This document shows positions 13,399 to 35,931 of a DNA stretch of 39,346 nucleotides, in pieces. The position numbers and the translations under genes are program-made. The stretch is from assembly GCA_004356105.1 (NCBI GenBank), contig SMYC01000258.1:1-39346 (forward strand), read 5' to 3'. This stretch comes from Acidobacteriota bacterium (lineage in GTDB: Bacteria; Acidobacteriota; Vicinamibacteria; Marinacidobacterales; SMYC01). Under the pieces are notes generated by a model, which saw only the letters and a program-made list of their open reading frames with translations, searched no databases and was not told the origin of the DNA. Every line of letters begins with the position of its first letter. Positions within the stretch are counted from its first letter, which is position 1.

Positions 13399-14028
13399 AT
13401 GCCAGAGTTACACGTCATCGATCACCCGCTCATCACACACAAGATGACCCTCATGCGGAAGAAGCAAACGTGTACGGGACAGTTTCGAGCACTCGTGCAA
13501 GAGGTCAGCATGCTTCTCGCCTATGAAGTCACGCGCGATTTTCCGCTGAGTCCGCTGCCGATCGAGACGCCGCTCGAAAAAATGACGGCGTACGTTCTCG
13601 ATGGCAAGAAGACCGTCTTCGTATCCATCCTGCGCGCCGGTAACGGCATCCTCGACGGAATGCTGCGCATTCTGCCTTCCGCCCGCGTGGGTCACATCGG
13701 GATCTATCGCGATCCGAAAACGCTCGTAGCGGTAGAGTATTACTTCAAGATGCCGCCAAACATGGAGAGCCGCAACGTCATCATCGTCGACCCCATGCTC
13801 GCAACAGGCCACTCGGCGATCGCCGCCGTGGACCGCCTCAACGAAACGAGGCCGCGCTCGACGAAATTCGTCTGCCTCGTTGCGTCGAAGGACGGGGTCG
13901 CGTCGTTTCACGAAAATCACCCGGACGTCCCCATCTACACCGCGGCGGTCGATGATGAGCTCAACGAAAAAGGCTACATCGTGCCGGGACTCGGCGACGC
14001 GGGGGATAGGCTGTACGGAACCCGGTAG
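13399..14028 (+). CDS. upp: Uracil phosphoribosyltransferase
   Basis: A 209-residue type I phosphoribosyltransferase converting uracil and PRPP to UMP. The start is ATG 13399, with ACAGGAG six bases upstream. It has the '[16 protein letters not shown]' segment (residues 74-89) and the PRPP-binding loop [10 protein letters not shown] (131-140; most Upp enzymes have ATGGS). It ends with the uracil-binding C-terminus [24 protein letters not shown]. It lies 13 bases after URC4, so it is best read as the uridine-nucleotide-forming step of the URC uracil catabolism cluster rather than only as a salvage enzyme. Intact. Confidence 0.95.
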
Positions 14029-14154
14029 AGACCCTCGGCCCGAGCGTCCACGTTCTGGTGAACCAGAGTCGCGGCGGCGTCGCTCTGAACTGACAACCGA
14101 AGAAGAGCGGCGAGTACATAGGCATTGAGCCAAGCGTGTCTTTTCCGGTTCTCG

Positions 14155-14340
14155 GCATCCGGACTCCAGATCGGCACGCTGTCGGCGGCGGCACCCAGCG
14201 TCACGCGGGTCATCGACCCGCGATCCAGGTCGGCGACCCAGACATCCACGTTCTCCCTGCCACCTCGTGCCGAGGGCCACCCTGGTCCCGGCGGGTGACG
14301 ACCCAAGATGGTGATACGGCTTCGACGCCATCATGCTCCT
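14155..14340 (-). pseudogene. Remnant of a PD40/TolB-like beta-propeller protein
   Basis: On the minus strand, SPAGTRVALGTR in one frame is followed in another by NVDVWVADLDRG and then SVPIWSPD. This is the signature of PD40 blades (SPDGxRxA, then DxWxxDLxxG, then PxWSPDG) as found in TolB-like or kinase-linked propellers of Acidobacteriota. At least one frameshift separates the two parts, and neither start nor stop is credible. The neighbouring sequence up to 14440 and down to 14029 has no recognisable gene. A decayed fragment between upp and the toxin-antitoxin pair. Confidence 0.5.
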
Positions 14341-14451
14341 TCTCGCCAAGCGCCGTGAGCGCTGTTGCGAGCCGGAGGATTCTGCGCTCTCGTCCGTCGA
14401 TTGGTTTGATTTCTCCGAACGATCTCCCGAGCTTTCATAGCCTACCATAGT

Positions 14452-15229: not shown

Positions 15230-16102
15230 TCAATGCCTCTGTACGAAATAGGAGCCCGTTACGACCAGCAGCGCTCCAATGAAGAGCTCGGGGCCAACTG
15301 GCTCCCCAAGGACAAGCCAGCTCAATAGAACCCCGAAGAGCGGCTGTGTCAGATACACGGTCGTGACTCGCGACGGCGGAAAGTTCTTTAGAAGCCATGT
15401 CTGCAAGAGAAAGGCGAAGCCGGCGATCACGACGCCTTGATAGAAGAGCGCCAAACCGAACCTGGCCGTGTACTGTGTCGGGTCGGTCTCGAAAAACGCG
15501 CTCGCGGCGAGAAAGCTCAACGTGCCCACGCCCGCTTGGGCAAGCAAGAGCTTTTCCACGGCGATCCCTTGCGCCGAGCGCGACAGAACGATCTGCCGCG
15601 CGCCGAGTAGAAGCGACGAGACGACGAGTAGGCCGTCACCCAGAAGCGTTCCACCTTCGCCGCGAAGGCTCGTGATGAACACCACGACAACACCGCTATA
15701 GGCCACGATCGCGCCGAGCACGCGCGGGCGTGTAAGCCTGTCGCCGGGCACGAGAAAGTGAGCCAATACCGAGGTCCATAGCGGATAGGCACTCATGATG
15801 ACCGCGGCGTGGCCGGCGCTCGTGTGGTTTTGTCCTATGTTCATGAAGGCGAGCTGGGAGGAGAACAGGCACCCCAGCCCGATCAGCGCCGCCCACTCGT
15901 GGCGCTCCACGCGGAGCGACTGGCGACGGAAAGCCGCCGCCGCTAGCACGATGAGCCCGCCGAGCACGAAACGCATCCATCCTAGACGCAGGGGTGGGCA
16001 GTCCCGGAGCCCGGCTTTCACCGCGACTGGGTTGCCTCCCCACAGCACGGAAAGGGATAGCGCGAGCCCGAGCGCGCCTTTCGTCAGTTTTTCGTGTCTC
16101 AA
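15230..16102 (-). CDS. EamA/DMT-family membrane transporter
   Basis: About 290 residues with ten hydrophobic helices in two EamA halves: the first begins LALSLSVLWGGNPVAVKAGL, the second LLGDGLLVVSSLLLGARQIV. DMT-family carriers export metabolites such as amino acids; the substrate cannot be told. The open frame extends upstream to 16240, but the region before 16102 belongs to a dispersed 124-bp repeat and does not look like transporter sequence. I therefore start at TTG 16102 (LRHEKLTKGALG), which itself lies inside the repeat; no good ribosome binding site is seen. The original first residues have probably been replaced by the repeat. Confidence 0.8.
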   Translation of the reverse strand: MRHEKLTKGALGLALSLSVLWGGNPVAVKAGLRDCPPLRLGWMRFVLGGLIVLAAAAFRRQSLRVERHEWAALIGLGCLFSSQLAFMNIGQNHTSAGHAAVIMSAYPLWTSVLAHFLVPGDRLTRPRVLGAIVAYSGVVVVFITSLRGEGGTLLGDGLLVVSSLLLGARQIVLSRSAQGIAVEKLLLAQAGVGTLSFLAASAFFETDPTQYTARFGLALFYQGVVIAGFAFLLQTWLLKNFPPSRVTTVYLTQPLFGVLLSWLVLGEPVGPELFIGALLVVTGSYFVQRH

Positions 16103-16199
16103 GCCCGCACATCTTATAGGATCGCCTGTCTGGAACTTGACGATGCACGAAACCACGGAGCCTAATCTCGGCGCTTTCCGAGATGTTCCGCTCAAGGGC
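16076..16199. repeat. Dispersed 124-bp repeat, copy A
   Basis: Matches 18581-18704 over 124 bases in direct orientation without a gap, at about 90% identity by eye (13 differences). It begins GCCTTTCGTCAGTTTTTCGTG. Near its right end is a perfect small hairpin, ATCTCGG-CGCTTT-CCGAGAT (16165-16184). It has no terminal inverted repeats and encodes nothing recognisable. Its left end lies inside the start of the EamA transporter gene. Confidence 0.9.
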
Positions 16200-16610: not shown

Positions 16611-18005
16611 ATGTGGATTTCGTATCTCGCGCTCCTCCTCGCGGTCCAGTCGGCTCCGTTCGAGGTCGGACGACCCGTCCCGGCTCTGACACTGCCTTCG
16701 ATCGAAGACGGCACGCCTCTGTCCGTGGCCGACTTTCGCGGCCAGAAAGTCATGCTACACGTCTGGGCTTCCTGGTGAGCGGGCTGCCGCAAGCACGTGC
16801 CCGGGTGGCACGAGAAAACGAAAGCGCTGCAGGACGCCGGTAAGCTCCAGTTGGTCGGCATCATCCAGGAGCAGCATCCCGATCGGACGCGCCTCTTCAT
16901 GCAGTGGAAGGAGATGGGCTGGCCGCTTCTCATCGACTCGTTGAACCTTCTCGACGTGTCGGCCGTGCCCCTGACCTATCTCGTCGATGAAGAGGGTGTT
17001 GTCCGCTACGAGCGGCCGAGCGACGAGGACCTCGAGACGTTCTTGGCCACGGACTATGCGAACGAGGACGCAGCGGCGCCGTCGCTCGATCCGGAAGTTG
17101 GCTCTCCGGAGTACGCTCTGCTCTGGGAGGACGACGGCGATGTGAGTGACGCGATCACGAAGCTCGGGGGGCGTATCGCCGAAGCCCCCGAGGATTCGCG
17201 CGCGCACTTCCGTCTGGGCGTGGCCTATCGCAAGCGCTACGATTCGGGTGAGCGCCGCGCCGGGGATTTCCAGAAAGCCGTCGAGCATTGGGTGCGTGCG
17301 CTCGAGCTCGATCCGAACCAATACATCTTTCGACGCCGTATTCAGCAATACGGGCCCCGTCTCGACAAGCCTTATCCGTTCTATGACTGGGTTCCCGAAG
17401 CGCGGGCGGCGGTCGAGGCGCGAGACGAGACGCCCGTCACTCTGCGGGTGGAGCCCGGCGGCGCCGAGTTCGCGGCGCCGCTGAAGTCTTTTGCCGCAAG
17501 CGCCGAGACCGGCACATCACCCGATCCCGACGGGCGTATCTTCCGCGATGAGAAACCCCTCATCGTCGCCGAGACCGTCGTCGTACCCACGGTGGTCGAG
17601 CCTGGCGAGAGCGCGCGCATCCATGTCGCGTTCAGGCCTGACCTCTCGTTGAAGGCGCACTGGAACAACGAGGTGGACGACCTTGTGTTTTGGGTCGATC
17701 CGCCCGCGGGGTGGAGTGTCGATCGCCACCATCACACGGTCGCGATTCCTCGAGAGCCCGTGAGCCAGGAGCTCCGTCAGGTCGAGTTCGAGATCGTGAG
17801 CCCCGAAGACTTCGAGGGCACGGAGACGATCCCTGCCTACGCGCTCTACTACGTGTGCGAAGACGTCGACGGCACGTGTCTCTTCCGCCGCCAGGACGTT
17901 CACGTCGAAGTGAGCGCGCCCTCGCTGGAGATATCCGCGCCGGCTGCGAAGATCGTGCCGAAGGAGCTCGAAGCTCATGGTGACGTTCGTATCGACAACT
18001 ACTAG
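16611..18005 (+). CDS. Probable selenoprotein: secreted TlpA/AhpC-like redoxin with a UxxC motif, C-terminus fused to a peptidase fragment
   Basis: ATG 16611 opens with a signal-like segment (MWISYLALLLAVQSAP) and a redoxin N-terminus (VGRPVPALTLPSIEDG, then VMLHVWASW). Codon 56 is UGA (16776-16778), and the frame continues AGCRKHVPGWHEKTKAL with convincing thioredoxin-fold sequence. The UGA thus occupies the first Cys of a CxxC motif, giving U-A-G-C. After the redoxin domain (to about residue 150) come a TPR-like helical part and a beta-rich domain (about 260-440). The last residues, IVPKELEAHGDVRIDNY, belong to an S9 peptidase N-terminus joined in frame; the stop is TAG 18003. Without selenocysteine, translation could only restart near GTG 16797. 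A plain nonsense mutation is the alternative. Confidence 0.7.
16776..16812 (+). promoter_or_regulatory. In-frame UGA with candidate bacterial SECIS hairpin
   Basis: After the UGA at 16776-16778, a hairpin forms between CGTGCC (16796-16801) and GGCACG (16807-16812), with loop CGGGT. The loop begins 24 bases past the UGA and has G at its second position. This fits the bacterial SECIS rules as I know them: an apical loop roughly 16-37 bases after the UGA, and a G within its first two positions. A fold prediction and selenium-machinery genes elsewhere in the genome would be needed as proof. Confidence 0.5.
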
Positions 18006-18452
18006 TGGCTGCGAGAGCGCGAAACCCCCGAAGTCATCGCCTATCTCGACGCGGAGAACGCCTATCTCGATAGAGGGCTCGGGCACACGAAGGGCCTGCA
18101 GGAAACGCTCTTCGAGGAGATCATCGCTCGTATCAAACAGGACGACGCCGCGGTTCCGTACCTCCGGGACGGTTACTACTACTACGCCCGTTACGAGGAA
18201 GGGAAGGAGTACGCGATCTACTGTCGCAAGAAGGGCTCGCTGAATGCGCCGGAAGAAATTATAGTCGATGCCAACGAGCTCGCTGAGGGGCACGACTTCT
18301 TTTCTTTGAGAGGTCTCGAGGTCAGCTCGGAGCGAGATATCGTAGCCTTCGGCACGGACACGGTGGGACGCCGGTTCTACACCCTGCGCTTCAAGAATCT
18401 TAACAGCAGCGACGCAGACCGGTTCCGCTTCTGTTGGGCGCGGGCCTTTTGA
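17940..18452 (+). pseudogene. N-terminal fragment of an S9-family oligopeptidase (PtrB-like), with an amber codon
   Basis: From about 17940 the frame of the redoxin turns into the N-terminus of a prolyl-oligopeptidase/oligopeptidase B: VPKELEAHGDVRIDNY, then TAG (18003-18005), then WLRERETPEVIAYLDAENAY, LQETLFEEIIARIKQDD, GKEYAIYCRKKGSL and GHDFFSLRGLEVS. The TAG stands where the family has a second Tyr (DxYYWLRER). The sequence stays open to TGA 18450 but stops resembling the family after TLRFKNL at about 18400. Only roughly 150 of about 700 residues remain, all from the propeller region, so the catalytic serine domain is gone. Confidence 0.8.
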
Positions 18453-18580: not shown

Positions 18581-18704
18581 GCCTTTCGTCAGTTTTTCGT
18601 GTATCAAGCCCGCACATCTTATAGGATCGCCCGGCTGGAACTTGACCTTGCACGAAACCACACAGCGTAATCTCGGCGCCTTTCGAGACGTTCCGTTCAT
18701 GGGC
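18581..18704. repeat. Dispersed 124-bp repeat, copy B
   Basis: Direct copy of 16076-16199 without gaps, about 90% identical. Its right end runs through the start codon of the aminotransferase (ATGGGC, against AAGGGC in copy A), so the repeat seems to supply the ATG of that gene. Its left end cuts the RND fragment. Confidence 0.9.
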
Positions 18705-31921: not shown

Positions 31922-32446
31922 TCAGCTCTCGCTGCTCGGTTCGTTCAAGAGTGCTACAAGGTCGCGGATCACCGAAGGGGCTACCCAGTCGCGAGCGCCA
32001 ACGACTTTCGATTTCAGGCGGCCGCTTCTATCAATGATGTAGGTCTCGGGATATTTGAAGGTCTTATAGGAGCGAGAGACTTTCATGCCGTCGTCGTGTA
32101 GAACAGTGAACGTCAAATTCCGCTCATCGACGAACCTTTCGATATCGCTGAACCGCTCGTCCACGGAGACGGCCACGACGGCCAGCCCTCTCGACGCGAG
32201 CGCCTCGTGGAGTTTTTCGAGTGAGGGCATCTCTTCGATACAAGGAGGACACCAGGTCGCCCAATAGTTGAGAACGACGACCTTCCCTCTCAGCTCATCG
32301 AGCGCATGCATCCGGCCTTTGAGGTCTGGAAGCGTAAAGCCGGGCACGGCCTCCCCTACTTGGACTCCAGGATTCCCCTTGCACGATAACGAGGCACAGG
32401 CAAAAAGGGCCGCGAAGAGAAGCGCCGCACGGGATTCAGCTCGCAT
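31922..32446 (-). CDS. TlpA/ResA-like thioredoxin-fold lipoprotein
   Basis: About 174 residues with a lipoprotein signal (LLFAALFACASLSC, lipobox LSC) and a thioredoxin domain: VPGFTLPDLKGRMHALDELRGKVVVLNYWATWCPPCIEEMP. The WCPPC active site is a standard Cys pair, unlike the U/C motif of the redoxin at 16611. It would reduce or exchange disulfides outside the cytoplasmic membrane, for example in cytochrome c maturation. ATG 32446 overlaps the stop of the preceding glycerophosphodiesterase gene. ATG 32464 is an alternative start. Confidence 0.88.
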   Translation of the reverse strand: MRAESRAALLFAALFACASLSCKGNPGVQVGEAVPGFTLPDLKGRMHALDELRGKVVVLNYWATWCPPCIEEMPSLEKLHEALASRGLAVVAVSVDERFSDIERFVDERNLTFTVLHDDGMKVSRSYKTFKYPETYIIDRSGRLKSKVVGARDWVAPSVIRDLVALLNEPSSES

Positions 32447-33284
32447 GAGGAGTATCTCGCACATGGGCGAGCGGCTTGAGCGGCTTGAGCGCCTCGACGT
32501 TGGCCACGGCACAGGCCGGGTCGTCGGTCATGATGCCGTCGACGCCCCATTCGAGAAGACGTGTGATGTGGATCGGCTCGTTCACGGTCCACACGTGCAC
32601 TTCCACGTCGAGCTCGTGAATGGCGTCGATGACGGGTTTTGAAACGACCCGTCTCAAGCCTTTATATTCCGGCACTTGGAACGCGGTACCCGGCGGCCGA
32701 TAGCCGGCAAGGCTTCCACTTCGCACGCGGACGAGAAAGTCGCGCACCTCGTCCTTGCTGAAGCTCGTGGCCACGCGCGGCGCGACGCCGCGGAAGCGCT
32801 GCAGCGCGTCGTGATGATGCGAGGCTACGATGACGCGTTCCTCCGCACCGTAGCGTTGCAGACGGTTTTGGACCACCTGCTCGACGCCCGAGCGGGTCTT
32901 CTTGAGCTCCAGGGTGAGACCGACATCGGGAAATGTTGTCAGCACTTCGTCGAGCGTCGGCATTGTCAGGCCCTTACCGCGATAAGGGAAGGTGCGGCCA
33001 TAGTCCATCGTAAATTTGTATCCCGCATCGAGCCTTTGGAGCTCAGCGAGGGACATGTTCTCGACGCGTCCTCGGCGGCCCGTGGTTCTGGACACGGAAT
33101 TGTCATGGATGATCACGGGCTCGCCATCCGATGTCAAGTGGATGTCCATCTCGAGATAGGACGCCCCTTGCTGGCACGCGAGCTTGAACGATTCGATCGT
33201 GTTCTCGGGCGCGCGGGCGCAGGCGCCGCGGTGGCCGAAGAGCCTCGGCGAAGGACCCGAGAAAAAGCCGTTATTTGACGACAC
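32436..33284 (-). CDS. Glycerophosphodiester phosphodiesterase (cytoplasmic type)
   Basis: A 282-residue TIM-barrel enzyme starting at GTG 33284. The metal- and substrate-binding HRG is intact (LFGHRGACARAPENTIESF), as are MDIHLTSDGEPVIIHDNSVSRTTG, LELKKT and a C-terminal HVWTVNEPIHITRLLEWGVDGIMTDDP. It hydrolyses glycerophosphodiesters such as glycerophosphocholine to glycerol-3-phosphate and an alcohol. It has no signal peptide, in contrast to the broken secreted copy at 10658. It is followed by a TlpA-like thioredoxin gene in a probable operon. Confidence 0.93.
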   Translation of the reverse strand: MSSNNGFFSGPSPRLFGHRGACARAPENTIESFKLACQQGASYLEMDIHLTSDGEPVIIHDNSVSRTTGRRGRVENMSLAELQRLDAGYKFTMDYGRTFPYRGKGLTMPTLDEVLTTFPDVGLTLELKKTRSGVEQVVQNRLQRYGAEERVIVASHHHDALQRFRGVAPRVATSFSKDEVRDFLVRVRSGSLAGYRPPGTAFQVPEYKGLRRVVSKPVIDAIHELDVEVHVWTVNEPIHITRLLEWGVDGIMTDDPACAVANVEALKPLKPLAHVRDTPHAS

Positions 33285-33393: not shown

Positions 33394-35931
33394 CTACAGC
33401 GTTTCGTCAAAGGCGGGTATGCGCAGTAAGACTCCCAGATCCCGGCGGTCGGGATTGTTCGGGTCGAGCTCCGAAGGCCTGAATCCGCCTTCACTGAAAA
33501 CGGTGAAGGCGGCGAGACCGTCTTCGATGGCGACGCGAACGCGCTTCTTCTGCCAAGGTCCGAGGCGAAAGCGCTTGGTGTCCATCTCTGTCTCCACGCG
33601 CACCCAGTTCTCCGAGCCGCCATTCAAAAGCTCGAGCTCGTCGCCTGTCGTGGATTCGAGCGTAAAGGCCGCGCGCGCGCCTCGCTTCACCCAGAAGCCG
33701 CGGCGATCGAGATAGGCTCCGTCATCGAGACTGTGAACACGCTGGTCGCCGGGGAAGACGAGACTTCGGTTCACGACCGGTCGCGGATCGAAGAGCTCGT
33801 CCCAATGCAGCCGTGGAGGACCACCGTCTTCGAGACGTCGCAGCCGCACCCGAAAACGGCCGAGCGCAACCTTCGACTCGAAGCGGGCGCCGTCCGCCTC
33901 GAAACAGCTTCGGTCGCTGCACGGCGCGAAGGCTTCGAGAGCAACTCCCGATACGCGATAACGTCCCGCCGGAATGTGGTACGGCAAGCTCCACCAATGG
34001 AGGGGGTCGCCGTCGGGACGGAAAGGACGGAGGGGCAGCGAGACGCGCGCTTTGACATCGCCGCCGCTCAAGCGCTCTCCCGATGGGAACGCGCGAAAGG
34101 CGTCAGCTCTGCTTTCGCTGAGCCCTCTCATGAGCTCCGTCACCCAGCGGCCTTCGAGGCGGCGGGAGACCTGCGCTCCGGTCAAGTCTCGAGCCCAGGC
34201 CGCGGCGAGCAGCAGCAGAACGAAAGGCGGCAGCCGTACCGGACGAGCGCGAAACTGTGCCGCGAGAGCAAGCAGAGCCAGCGCGAGCGCGATGCTCGCG
34301 AAGATGACCGAGTGCGCGTCCGCGTTAATGAGCGATGGAAGATAGCTCGTGAGATCCCACGAGCTAGAGAGCGCTTCCCAAAGCCGCCCCGTGCCGTCTC
34401 TGGCATTCAAGTAAAGAGGTTGCCCCGGCAGGAAAACACTAAAGAGCGAAACGGAGAGACTGACCGCGAGAAGCGTTGGTAACCACGGCGTTACGCCCTC
34501 GAGGCGCTCTCGAGCCCACAGTCTCGACGCCGCCATTGCGAGAAGAGGGAGCACGGGGAAGAGAAAACGCGCCGCCGGCGAATTGCCCCCGGACCATAGG
34601 GGATGGGCTGCGCCCGGAAGTGCTATAACAGCGAGCGCGAGCAGCGAAACGACGCCAAAAAAGAAATCGCGCCGCAGCAGTGGCACGAGCCCCGCGAGGC
34701 CGATGAGGTAGACGGGCGAGACCGGAAGAAGCCCGAACTCCTGGTCGAAGAACAAGCCGAGAAGACCTATCGGGATACCGGACATGAAAATACGCTGGCG
34801 TCCATAGGAAGCGGTGGGATCGAGACTTCCCGTCGAGACGAAGAAGAACGTAACGAGCGCCAAAGCACCGACAGCGGCACCGCACAAAACCGGCGCGCGG
34901 CCGCGCTGAAAACGATAAGCCAAAGCACCCCACAACAAACCGGCGAGCGGGATGAACTTCATGTGAAAAAAAGGAAGCGTCGCGACCAAAAGCGCCCACC
35001 CGAGCGCAAGAAGACGCGTCTCGGCCTCACGTCGGAGAAGTCGCACGGCTACCAGCGTCACGATTACCGCGGCGGGAAGCTCGGGATAGGCGGAAGAGGA
35101 TAGGAAGAGAGCCGGCGAAGTCAGTCCGAAAACGCAGGACGCGAGTACCGACGCCTCGCGGTTGCCTGTCAGAAGGAACGCGGCAAGGTAGATCGCGCGC
35201 CACAGCATCGCACCCAAGAGCGCGAGCGTGACGAGAGCGCCCGTCAGCCCCGCGAGTGCGTAGCCGGGGACGAGAAGGATCGGCAGTCCAATCCCGTGAA
35301 TCGAGTACGGCGTGTTGGCGGCGAGGTGCGGCCCGATCTTTCCCAGATAAAAACCGCGGTAGTCCTCCTGAAAGTAGTTGTTCTGAACGCGAAGATCGCC
35401 GTCGTGGACGAGGCTATGGGTGATGAGGAGATAGTGAGGCTCGTCGCCCGAGAGGCCGACATCGTGCGACATCTTCAACCCGATGGCGAGATGAACGCAA
35501 AACCCGAGAAAGGCTATGCGGCGCGTCGTGGCGATGTGGCGGCCGAGCCCGCGCGGCGCGAGCGCACGCCACAGCCACAACAAGGTGGCGCTGACGAGCA
35601 GGAAGTCGAGCAGGCGTCCGGAGAAGAGAGCTGTGAACGGCGCCACTGAGAAGAGCGACGGGACGAACACGGCGCCCGCCAGTCCGGCGGGAAGAAATGG
35701 CGTGATCCAGCTTGCCTTCCCAGAGCGGTGGGCGGCGAAGCCAAGCGCGGCCCCGAGCGCGACGAACACCACGACGAGCAAGAGGTTAGGGATCGAGCTC
35801 AGAAGCCAGGGCTCGACACTAGCATTCATGTCGACGTCCCGGTCGAAGACCGGGAAACGCCGGGTGGAGCGCATCGCGAGCGCGAGGCCGAGCGCCATGC
35901 CCGCCACGACCGCGATCCAGGAAGTTTTCAA
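33394..35931 (-). CDS. GT-C-like membrane protein, probable polyprenol-linked glycosyltransferase
   Basis: An 845-residue protein. About a dozen hydrophobic helices fill residues 1-600. The first large outside loop has the acidic motif typical of GT-C/ArnT-type enzymes (DVGLSGDEPHYLLITHSLVHDGDL; Asp-Glu adjacent in GDEPHY). The C-terminal 250 residues form a soluble, mostly beta domain with repeated aromatic and charged strands (RYRVSGVALEAFAPC, RFRVRLRRLEDGG). Enzymes of this kind transfer a sugar from a lipid carrier to lipid A, glycan or protein on the periplasmic side. The exact acceptor is unknown. Its start overlaps the stop of the Nudix gene upstream by four bases. Confidence 0.72.
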   Translation of the reverse strand: MKTSWIAVVAGMALGLALAMRSTRRFPVFDRDVDMNASVEPWLLSSIPNLLLVVVFVALGAALGFAAHRSGKASWITPFLPAGLAGAVFVPSLFSVAPFTALFSGRLLDFLLVSATLLWLWRALAPRGLGRHIATTRRIAFLGFCVHLAIGLKMSHDVGLSGDEPHYLLITHSLVHDGDLRVQNNYFQEDYRGFYLGKIGPHLAANTPYSIHGIGLPILLVPGYALAGLTGALVTLALLGAMLWRAIYLAAFLLTGNREASVLASCVFGLTSPALFLSSSAYPELPAAVIVTLVAVRLLRREAETRLLALGWALLVATLPFFHMKFIPLAGLLWGALAYRFQRGRAPVLCGAAVGALALVTFFFVSTGSLDPTASYGRQRIFMSGIPIGLLGLFFDQEFGLLPVSPVYLIGLAGLVPLLRRDFFFGVVSLLALAVIALPGAAHPLWSGGNSPAARFLFPVLPLLAMAASRLWARERLEGVTPWLPTLLAVSLSVSLFSVFLPGQPLYLNARDGTGRLWEALSSSWDLTSYLPSLINADAHSVIFASIALALALLALAAQFRARPVRLPPFVLLLLAAAWARDLTGAQVSRRLEGRWVTELMRGLSESRADAFRAFPSGERLSGGDVKARVSLPLRPFRPDGDPLHWWSLPYHIPAGRYRVSGVALEAFAPCSDRSCFEADGARFESKVALGRFRVRLRRLEDGGPPRLHWDELFDPRPVVNRSLVFPGDQRVHSLDDGAYLDRRGFWVKRGARAAFTLESTTGDELELLNGGSENWVRVETEMDTKRFRLGPWQKKRVRVAIEDGLAAFTVFSEGGFRPSELDPNNPDRRDLGVLLRIPAFDETL

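What the first reader, a model, noticed from the sequence alone, without database searches (positions are those of the whole stretch)
16611..18005. Probable selenocysteine redoxin: UGA at the first position of a CxxC motif
The frame is open from 16611 to 18005 apart from one UGA (16776-16778). That UGA sits exactly where TlpA/AhpC-like redoxins have the first catalytic Cys (HVWASW-UGA-AGC), leaving U-A-G-C with a second Cys three residues on. Good redoxin sequence continues downstream. A hairpin at 16796-16812 with loop CGGGT fits bacterial SECIS geometry. A signal peptide and a long C-terminal part with a TPR-like region make it an unusual domain combination.
Basis: partly seen in the sequence, partly recalled or inferred. 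Interest (0 to 1): 0.85.

Follow-up and report, generated by a model that had tools for sequence, protein, structure and literature searches.

The report
Always-selenium three-domain redox protein family
A UGA stop codon inside this bacterial gene is very likely read as selenocysteine at the catalytic site of a predicted exported redox protein; every close relative whose sequence covers the site keeps that same UGA, and the best-matching database proteins all begin after it, so this likely selenium enzyme family seems to have been overlooked in annotation.

Summary
The frame 16611-18005 is interrupted only by UGA at 16776-16778, where TlpA/ResA redoxins have their first catalytic Cys (U-A-G-C). 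The host genome (Acidobacteriota, inferred from a same-family genome) has selA, selB, selD and a tRNA-Sec. All 109 distinct family loci read at the position carry TGA, none Cys; record titles include Acidobacteriota, Planctomycetota, Verrucomicrobiota and Gemmatimonadota. A hairpin directly downstream (16796-16812) shows strong compensatory covariation, confirmed on 28 sequences not used to define it: 168 of 168 pair cells form, some by swapping amino acids. All 192 best database proteins begin after the UGA. AlphaFold2 (pLDDT 92) gives a ResA/CcmG-like domain, a TPR-like helical domain and an Ig-like domain with an invariant Cys pair (CX6C). NCBIfam's nearest model (WAxxUGC, 76 of 300 bits) covers a sister family. 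I read it as a Sec-based thiol-disulfide reductase with an inferred built-in relay to the CX6C pair. Not shown: Sec in the protein, activity, substrate. Not excluded: that the catalogued 'Redoxin family protein (UxxC)' includes it. The window copy has lost its usual stop and reads on into a peptidase fragment.

The parts
16611..18005 (+). selenoprotein reading frame (UGA at codon 56; family part ends at about 17921; TAG at 18003-18005)
16611..16658 (+). predicted signal peptide / hydrophobic N-terminus MWISYLALLLAVQSAP
   Evidence: sequence; helix 2-9 in the model; 63 of 76 relatives with an N-terminus in hand pass a crude hydrophobicity test, 13 do not
16659..17057 (+). TlpA/ResA/CcmG-like redoxin domain (residues 17-149)
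16776..16778 (+). UGA read as selenocysteine (residue 56), first position of U-A-G-C
16785..16787 (+). second catalytic-motif Cys (residue 59), invariant
16796..16812 (+). bacterial SECIS-type hairpin, loop 16802-16806 (CGGGU), apical pair C16802-G16805
17106..17348 (+). TPR-like helical domain (residues 166-246)
17526..17921 (+). C-terminal Ig-like domain (residues 306-437)
17856..17858 (+). invariant Cys416 of CX6C
   Evidence: 57 of 57 in A2
17877..17879 (+). invariant Cys423 of CX6C
   Evidence: 57 of 57 in A2

Best explanation
The gene very likely encodes a selenocysteine-dependent, predicted exported protein that likely acts as a thiol-disulfide reductase, made by reading the UGA at 16776 as selenocysteine, which the covarying hairpin just behind it would direct. 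Shown by the calls: an open frame under coding constraint on both sides of the UGA, sel genes and tRNA-Sec in the same genome, UGA and nothing else at this position in the 109 distinct family loci read there, a SECIS-type hairpin kept by compensatory changes, and invariant Cys59, Cys416 and Cys423 in 57 aligned members. Inferred: SelB-tRNA-Sec inserts Sec56; the selenolate (Sec56, with Cys59 as the resolving thiol) attacks oxidised thiols outside the cytoplasm; the TPR-like domain positions the partner or the C-terminal domain; and the CX6C pair of the Ig-like domain exchanges electrons with the Sec56-Cys59 bond in the same chain, much as nDsbD exchanges with CcmG in Escherichia coli. The electron source and final substrate are unknown.
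For: Machinery: selA 457 bits, SelB wing domain 55 bits, tRNA-Sec 74 bits with UCA anticodon, selD 285 bits. UGA column: 81 of 81 and 28 of 28 further distinct family loci; 42 of 392 genomes of the phylum of G145 (a Pirellulaceae MAG, Planctomycetota by its record title) have a match, each of the 42 with a TGA-containing stretch; the codon was read in the 30 that became loci. Genomes carrying the gene: selA over cut-off in 42 of 49; tRNA-Sec over cut-off in 43 of 49, at 60 bits or more in 38 of 49. TGA is the next in-frame stop in 30 of 81 of these genes, so the code is not reassigned. SECIS: covariation score 0.180 against 0.065 shuffled in 81 sequences; in 28 held-out sequences 168 of 168 cells paired, 23 double-change cells against 7.0, score 0.435 against 0.121; 9 changes of apical pair type needed on the protein tree, 5 forced by well-supported branches. 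The Val codon in the stem is GTG in 80 of 81 (39% elsewhere in these genes), and the one GTA is matched by TAC. Fold: pLDDT 92.1, N-domain matches ResA/CcmG.
Against: No direct evidence of Sec in the protein. The hairpin of the window alone is not unusually stable. Of the five shuffle measures, 'pairs with a change on both sides' does not stand out (24 of 500 shuffles reach it, 156 of 500), nor does 'further pair types' (105 of 500). selA is common in this phylum anyway (192 of 297), so its presence in 12 of the 14 gene-bearing genomes of that sample is weak evidence by itself; G222 shows only a fragment and G245 none. 7 of 49 gene-bearing MAGs lack selA over cut-off; of these only G112 also lacks a tRNA-Sec match of 60 bits or more. 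The tRNA-Sec cut-off of 47 bits is loose: 5 of 14 control genomes exceed it. For the relay: no neighbour gene is widely conserved, the distance from Sec56 to Cys416/423 could not be measured, nDsbD is not among the listed fold matches, and a disulfide in CX6C could be merely structural. The window copy has an abnormal 3' end.
Confidence: 0.8

Rival explanations
1. It is a selenoprotein, but works as a Sec peroxidase (peroxiredoxin-like), the CX6C pair being structural or an internal resolving pair.
For: AhpC-TSA and Redoxin Pfam hits; weak GSHPx hits in 5 of 57 members; Prx structures among the lower fold matches.
Against: The U-x-x-C motif after WASW and the best fold and sequence matches (ResA, CcmG, TlpA, StoA) are of disulfide reductases. 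The Sec motif listed for Prx is TxxU (PMC13188914 Table 1).
Confidence: 0.25
2. The UGA is a real stop or a decay mutation, and the downstream part is translated separately from a start such as GTG 16797, as the databases annotate it.
For: All 192 database proteins listed begin at or after residue 57; a GTG start exists at 16797.
Against: UGA in 109 of 109 distinct loci; residues between the UGA and that start are conserved (GCR in 81 of 81); coding constraint on both sides; a separate downstream protein would lack part of the redoxin fold and the first active-site residue; the covarying hairpin would be unexplained.
Confidence: 0.03
3. UGA is read through by another route, such as near-cognate Trp or Cys insertion or a reassigned UGA.
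For: None found.
Against: TGG, TGC and TGT do not replace it in any of the 109 family loci; TGA is the next in-frame stop of 30 of 81 of the same genes; sel genes present; hairpin of SECIS type.
Confidence: 0.02
4. The family is already catalogued as the 'Redoxin family protein (UxxC)', or falls within the Prx-like 3 selenoproteins of the ocean-sampling survey, so only the architecture and the lack of a Cys form are new.
For: PMC13188914 Table 1 lists such a family (PF08534, UxxC, HEU0032618.1); the older review PMC9312934 lists it with MBA3499694.1 and cites the 2008 and 2016 surveys; the 2008 survey lists Prx-like 3 and one Prx-like 3 fusion.
Against: That fusion is described with three conserved Cys including CxxC, whereas here the only two conserved C-terminal Cys form CX6C; that survey counted 2,608 Cys homologues for Prx-like 3, none seen here. 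The accessions themselves could not be read.
Confidence: 0.3

Closest known systems
ResA-like WAxxUGC family (NCBIfam NF041054), probably the 'UGC-containing TlpA' selenoproteins of PMC13188914
   Same: ResA-like redoxin with Sec after WASW, followed by a TPR-like stretch; a copy just under the model's cut-off occurs in the same genome (L128, 298.3 of 300 bits).
   Different: U-G-C instead of U-x-G-C; an extra N-terminal region; no C-terminal Ig-like CX6C part in the seven read-throughs; the window protein scores 76 of 300 bits.
TlpA/ResA/CcmG (DsbE) thiol-disulfide reductases
   Different: Sec instead of the first Cys; fused TPR-like and Ig-like domains.
'Redoxin family protein' and Prx-like UxxC selenoproteins in published catalogues (PMC13188914, PMC9312934, PMC2398784)
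   Same: Predicted UxxC redoxin selenoproteins.
   Different: No TPR/Ig-like CX6C architecture is named in the passages read; Cys forms are counted for the Prx-like families; whether HEU0032618.1 is this family is unknown.
nDsbD, the N-terminal domain of DsbD
   Same: Ig fold with two redox Cys on opposite strands of a hairpin, partner of CcmG (PMC7347389, passages); here an Ig-like fold with CX6C at the turn between the last two strands.
   Different: CX6C instead of C103 and C109 (five residues between); no sequence match to a DsbD N-terminal family in the listed Pfam hits and not among the listed fold matches.

Membership tests
bacterial selenoproteins | in-frame UGA conserved at a catalytic position | tested here: met
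   109 of 109 distinct loci read there
bacterial selenoproteins | Sec machinery in the genome | tested here: met
bacterial selenoproteins | bSECIS model: 4-16 bp stem, 3-9 nt loop, G in the first two loop positions, 16-37 nt from the UGA, MFE -7.5 or lower (read in PMC13188914) | tested here: met
   6 bp, 5 nt loop CGGGU, 23 nt, -9.6 kcal/mol; covariation
bacterial selenoproteins | selenium in the protein | not testable with these tools
   needs mass spectrometry or 75Se labelling
TlpA/ResA/CcmG thiol-disulfide reductases | thioredoxin-like fold with an active-site pair spaced as CxxC | tested here: met
   U56-x-x-C59
TlpA/ResA/CcmG thiol-disulfide reductases | curated NCBIfam cut-offs (ResA, TlpA, DsbE, StoA) | tested here: not met
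   42.5/170, 42.2/230, 40/123, 42/210 bits: a relative, not a member of those subfamilies
NF041054 WAxxUGC family | curated cut-off 300 bits and UGC motif | tested here: not met
   76.3 bits; motif UAGC; 57 of 57 members match at E 1e-5 or better, best E 2.8e-28
nDsbD (DsbD N-terminal domain) | sequence and fold relationship | tested here: inconclusive
   no listed Pfam hit; not among listed fold matches; Ig-like fold and Cys pair at a strand turn agree
peroxiredoxins | TxxU/TxxC peroxidatic motif | tested here: not met
   A53-S-W-U56 instead, A53 invariant in 57 of 57
catalogued 'Redoxin family protein (UxxC)' | homology to HEU0032618.1 / MBA3499694.1 | not tested
   accessions not readable with the tools

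The most novel reading that the evidence does not exclude
A bacterial selenoprotein family with no cysteine form: a three-domain extracytoplasmic redox relay (Sec thioredoxin, TPR, Ig-like CX6C) spread over several phyla, whose chemistry requires selenium. It would be an exception to the statement in print that all known selenoproteins seem to have Cys homologues, and it is missed by annotation because database copies begin after the UGA.
Probability: 0.5. Interest if true: 0.85.

Novelty: new variant of a known kind. Interest (0 to 1): 0.72.

Why it matters
Nearly all selenoprotein families have Cys counterparts, and some finders rely on them: the deep-Sep paper says its homology filter may drop selenoproteins without Cys homologues and that all known selenoproteins now seem to have them (PMC12013277, passage). 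Here TGA stands at the site in 109 of 109 distinct loci, with no Cys form found at family level, although the wider TlpA superfamily has many Cys members. That makes the old question of why Sec is kept testable in one protein: replace U56 by Cys and see what fails. It also shows that database records of the family lack the first part of their redoxin domain, active-site residue included. The amino-acid swaps that follow the SECIS stem (Leu with Gln; Val GTC with Asp, Val GTT with Asn) are a clear natural case of an mRNA structure steering protein sequence.

Tried and rejected
Conserved gene neighbourhood: in 81 loci with up to 4 kb flanks the largest neighbour cluster occurs in only 9 loci, in mixed positions; no operon partner seen.

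Rfam at E up to 5 around the UGA gives one match, a sub-threshold snoRNA (12.9 bits, cut-off 55), and no SECIS family.

Single-sequence folding is no proof of the hairpin; dropped in favour of covariation.

Search for Cys forms: (i) one search lists 120 of 2617 matches and one search lists 120 of 249 (query residues 1-160); the 192 distinct proteins of the two lists all begin at or after query residue 57, so none covers the Sec position; unlisted lower matches were not seen; (ii) residues 16-70 alone: 12 candidates, none at E 10 or better; (iii) genome scans at E 1e-20 and 1e-30: no match with Cys at the site that also has the later domains; the one TGC row, L153, is a short ordinary TlpA. Sensitivity is limited to relatives sharing exact words or profile similarity; a remote Cys form is not excluded.

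Rows dropped before counts: L122 starts after the UGA and is not in the 81. Of the 46 loci L138-L183, 15 repeat earlier 48-mers, L151 and L152 do not give the column (contig end; UGC-type relative), L153 is not a family member, leaving 28 for the held-out test. 57 of 81 sequences went into the structure prediction. selA and tRNA-Sec were sought for 50 of the 80 loci, that is 49 genomes. Six sequences of one planctomycete clade (L109, L111, L117, L120, L121, L125) break one stem pair and instead fold a hairpin a few nucleotides upstream; they were kept in the 81.

Papers: read PMC13188914 (sections 5, 7 parts 1-2 of 3, 8, passages), PMC2398784 (section 9, passages), passages of PMC12013277, PMC9312934, PMC5029168, PMC1794560, PMC4807772, PMC7347389; others only as search listings. 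No description of this architecture was met in those searches; supplements were not readable and most subscription papers are not held.

Full report
What is there. Window frame 16611-18005 (+) is open apart from UGA 16776-16778. Read through, it gives a 464-residue protein: hydrophobic N-terminus, AhpC-TSA/redoxin domain, TPR-like helices, and a C-terminal part without a Pfam match in the window copy. The UGA follows H-V-W-A-S-W and precedes A-G-C-R, exactly the first active-site Cys of TlpA/ResA proteins (one search shows ordinary relatives with WATWCxPC-type sequence in this column).

Machinery. The assembly holding the window (6.77 Mb, 335 contigs, 93% complete) has selA, the SelB wing domain, a tRNA-Sec with UCA anticodon and selD. 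Its same-family relatives G001 and G003 carry the gene with the UGA and selA. The G003 copy lies on the same contig as L048, titled Acidobacteriota, so the host is placed there by inference.

Relatives. A scan of one genome per GTDB species with alignment A1 found 171 loci, 80 kept. In 79 of 80 the UGA column is covered, and in all 79 it is TGA; with the window and G001 this is 81 of 81. L122 begins downstream. Profile scans then gave 16 of 297 genomes of the window's phylum at E 1e-20; 14 are family members, G319 is a UGC-type relative and G241 an ordinary TlpA. Of the 14, 13 show one TGA and G245 is cut at a contig end before the site. In the phylum of a Pirellulaceae MAG, 42 of 392 genomes have a match. 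28 loci with sequences not seen before all have TGA. So 109 of 109 distinct loci read at the site are TGA, none Cys. Record titles name Acidobacteriota, Planctomycetota, Verrucomicrobiota, Gemmatimonadota and, singly, other groups; these are mostly MAG labels.

Databases. Among 5.8 billion predicted proteins, the 120 best matches of each of two searches, 192 distinct proteins of 326-554 aa, all begin at or after residue 57; the few names given are hypothetical, TPR repeat or thioredoxin family protein. A search with residues 16-70 alone found nothing. No NCBIfam model reaches its cut-off on the window protein: the best, NF041054, scores 76 against 300.

The hairpin. Codons 7-11 after the UGA form GUGCC-N-G-N-N-U-GGCAC in most members. 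Within 81 sequences the stem Val codon is GTG in 80, against 39% elsewhere in the same genes, and the single GTA (L087) is matched by TAC. The wobble base of the Pro codon pairs with that of the next codon in 80 of 81 (C-G 60, G-C 15, A-U 5; L074 is A-C), although both positions are synonymous. Covariation 0.180 against 0.065 shuffled, 21 double-change cells against 4.4, neither reached by 500 shuffles; two of the five measures do not stand out (pairs with a double change 24 of 500, further types 105 of 500). The protein tree needs 9 changes of this pair type, 5 forced by well-supported branches for the commonest type. On 28 sequences not used to define the stem, 168 of 168 cells pair, 23 double-change cells against 7.0, covariation 0.435 against 0.121; four of five measures are reached by no shuffle, the number of pairs with a double change by 156 of 500. 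In these, Gln (CAG) goes with Leu (CTG), Tyr (TAC or TAT) with GTA, ATA or GTG, Asp (GAC) with GTC and Asn (AAC) with GTT. The geometry fits the bacterial SECIS model read in PMC13188914. Single-sequence stability is ordinary.

Not another code. TGA is the next in-frame stop in 30 of the 81 genes, so UGA still terminates. Third-position changes dominate on both sides of the UGA, and a truncated remnant in G002 keeps 34 of 36 N-terminal residues despite 17 base changes.

Mechanism. Shown: UGA column, SECIS covariation, machinery, invariant Cys. Predicted: fold, export, Sec insertion. Inferred: Sec56/Cys59 is the working pair of a disulfide reductase, and CX6C serves as relay or docking pair, by analogy with nDsbD-CcmG exchange (PMC7347389, passages). 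A peroxidase role or a structural disulfide remain possible.

Novelty. The closest described families are the UGC-containing TlpA selenoproteins and the catalogued UxxC 'Redoxin family protein'. A UGC-type protein, 298.3 bits against NF041054's cut-off of 300, also occurs in this genome. Identity with the 'Redoxin family protein' could not be tested. The deep-Sep authors write that all known selenoproteins now seem to have Cys homologues; for this family none was found at family level in the searches listed.

Window copy. Beyond residue 437 the window gene lacks the stop seen in relatives, runs in frame into the N-terminal part of a prolyl oligopeptidase and ends at TAG 18003. 124-nt repeats (90% alike) flank the region at 16076-16199 and 18581-18704. 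The Sec part is intact, but this copy may sit in a rearranged spot.

Noticed in passing
window 17922-18383: The stop seen in relatives is missing; the frame runs on into a Peptidase_S9_N fragment (7e-36 for 18006-18383), with TAG at 18003 and a further stop at 18384.
   Followed up: partly
window 16076-16199 and 18581-18704: Two direct repeats of 124 nt, 90% alike, flank the redoxin gene and the peptidase fragment; possibly a mobile or recombination element.
   Followed up: partly
L128 (G000:C248), minus strand: A second Sec-type redoxin in the same genome, UGC motif, 298.3 bits against NF041054's cut-off of 300.
   Followed up: yes
L137:2742-2849 (G002): A same-family genome keeps only the first 36 codons of the gene (84.5% DNA identity over 110 nt, beginning 3 nt before the start codon) inside a 77 kb contig, although it has selA: an apparent loss.
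   Followed up: partly
L048 (same contig as G003:C574): Window block 7.4-14.0 kb is conserved beside the redoxin gene but in another order: there the gene lies between regions matching window 11148 and 11190.
   Followed up: no
L109, L111, L117, L120, L121, L125: A planctomycete clade with U-R-G-C has a hairpin a few nt upstream (CAGGCC-GUGCC-GGCCUG type) instead of the family stem.
   Followed up: partly
window 31925-32512 (-): Another AhpC-TSA/TlpA-like protein (196 aa) with an uninterrupted frame in the same window.
   Followed up: no
L012 (G000:C18): The selD match lies in an open frame of 796 aa, more than twice the length of the selD model; possibly a fusion such as Ndh-SelD.
   Followed up: no
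L133, L134 (G079), L136 (G035): Other redoxins with UGA at the first active-site position (ASW-U-GVC, YPT-U-AGC, ASW-U-PFC), apparently different Sec families.
   Followed up: no
L021 (G070): A copy with only the C-terminal part (about 257-435), unrelated sequence upstream: truncated copy or chimeric contig.
   Followed up: partly
window 33397-35931 (-) and 13411-14448 (-): Long open frames (845 and 346 aa) without a Pfam match at 0.001.
   Followed up: no
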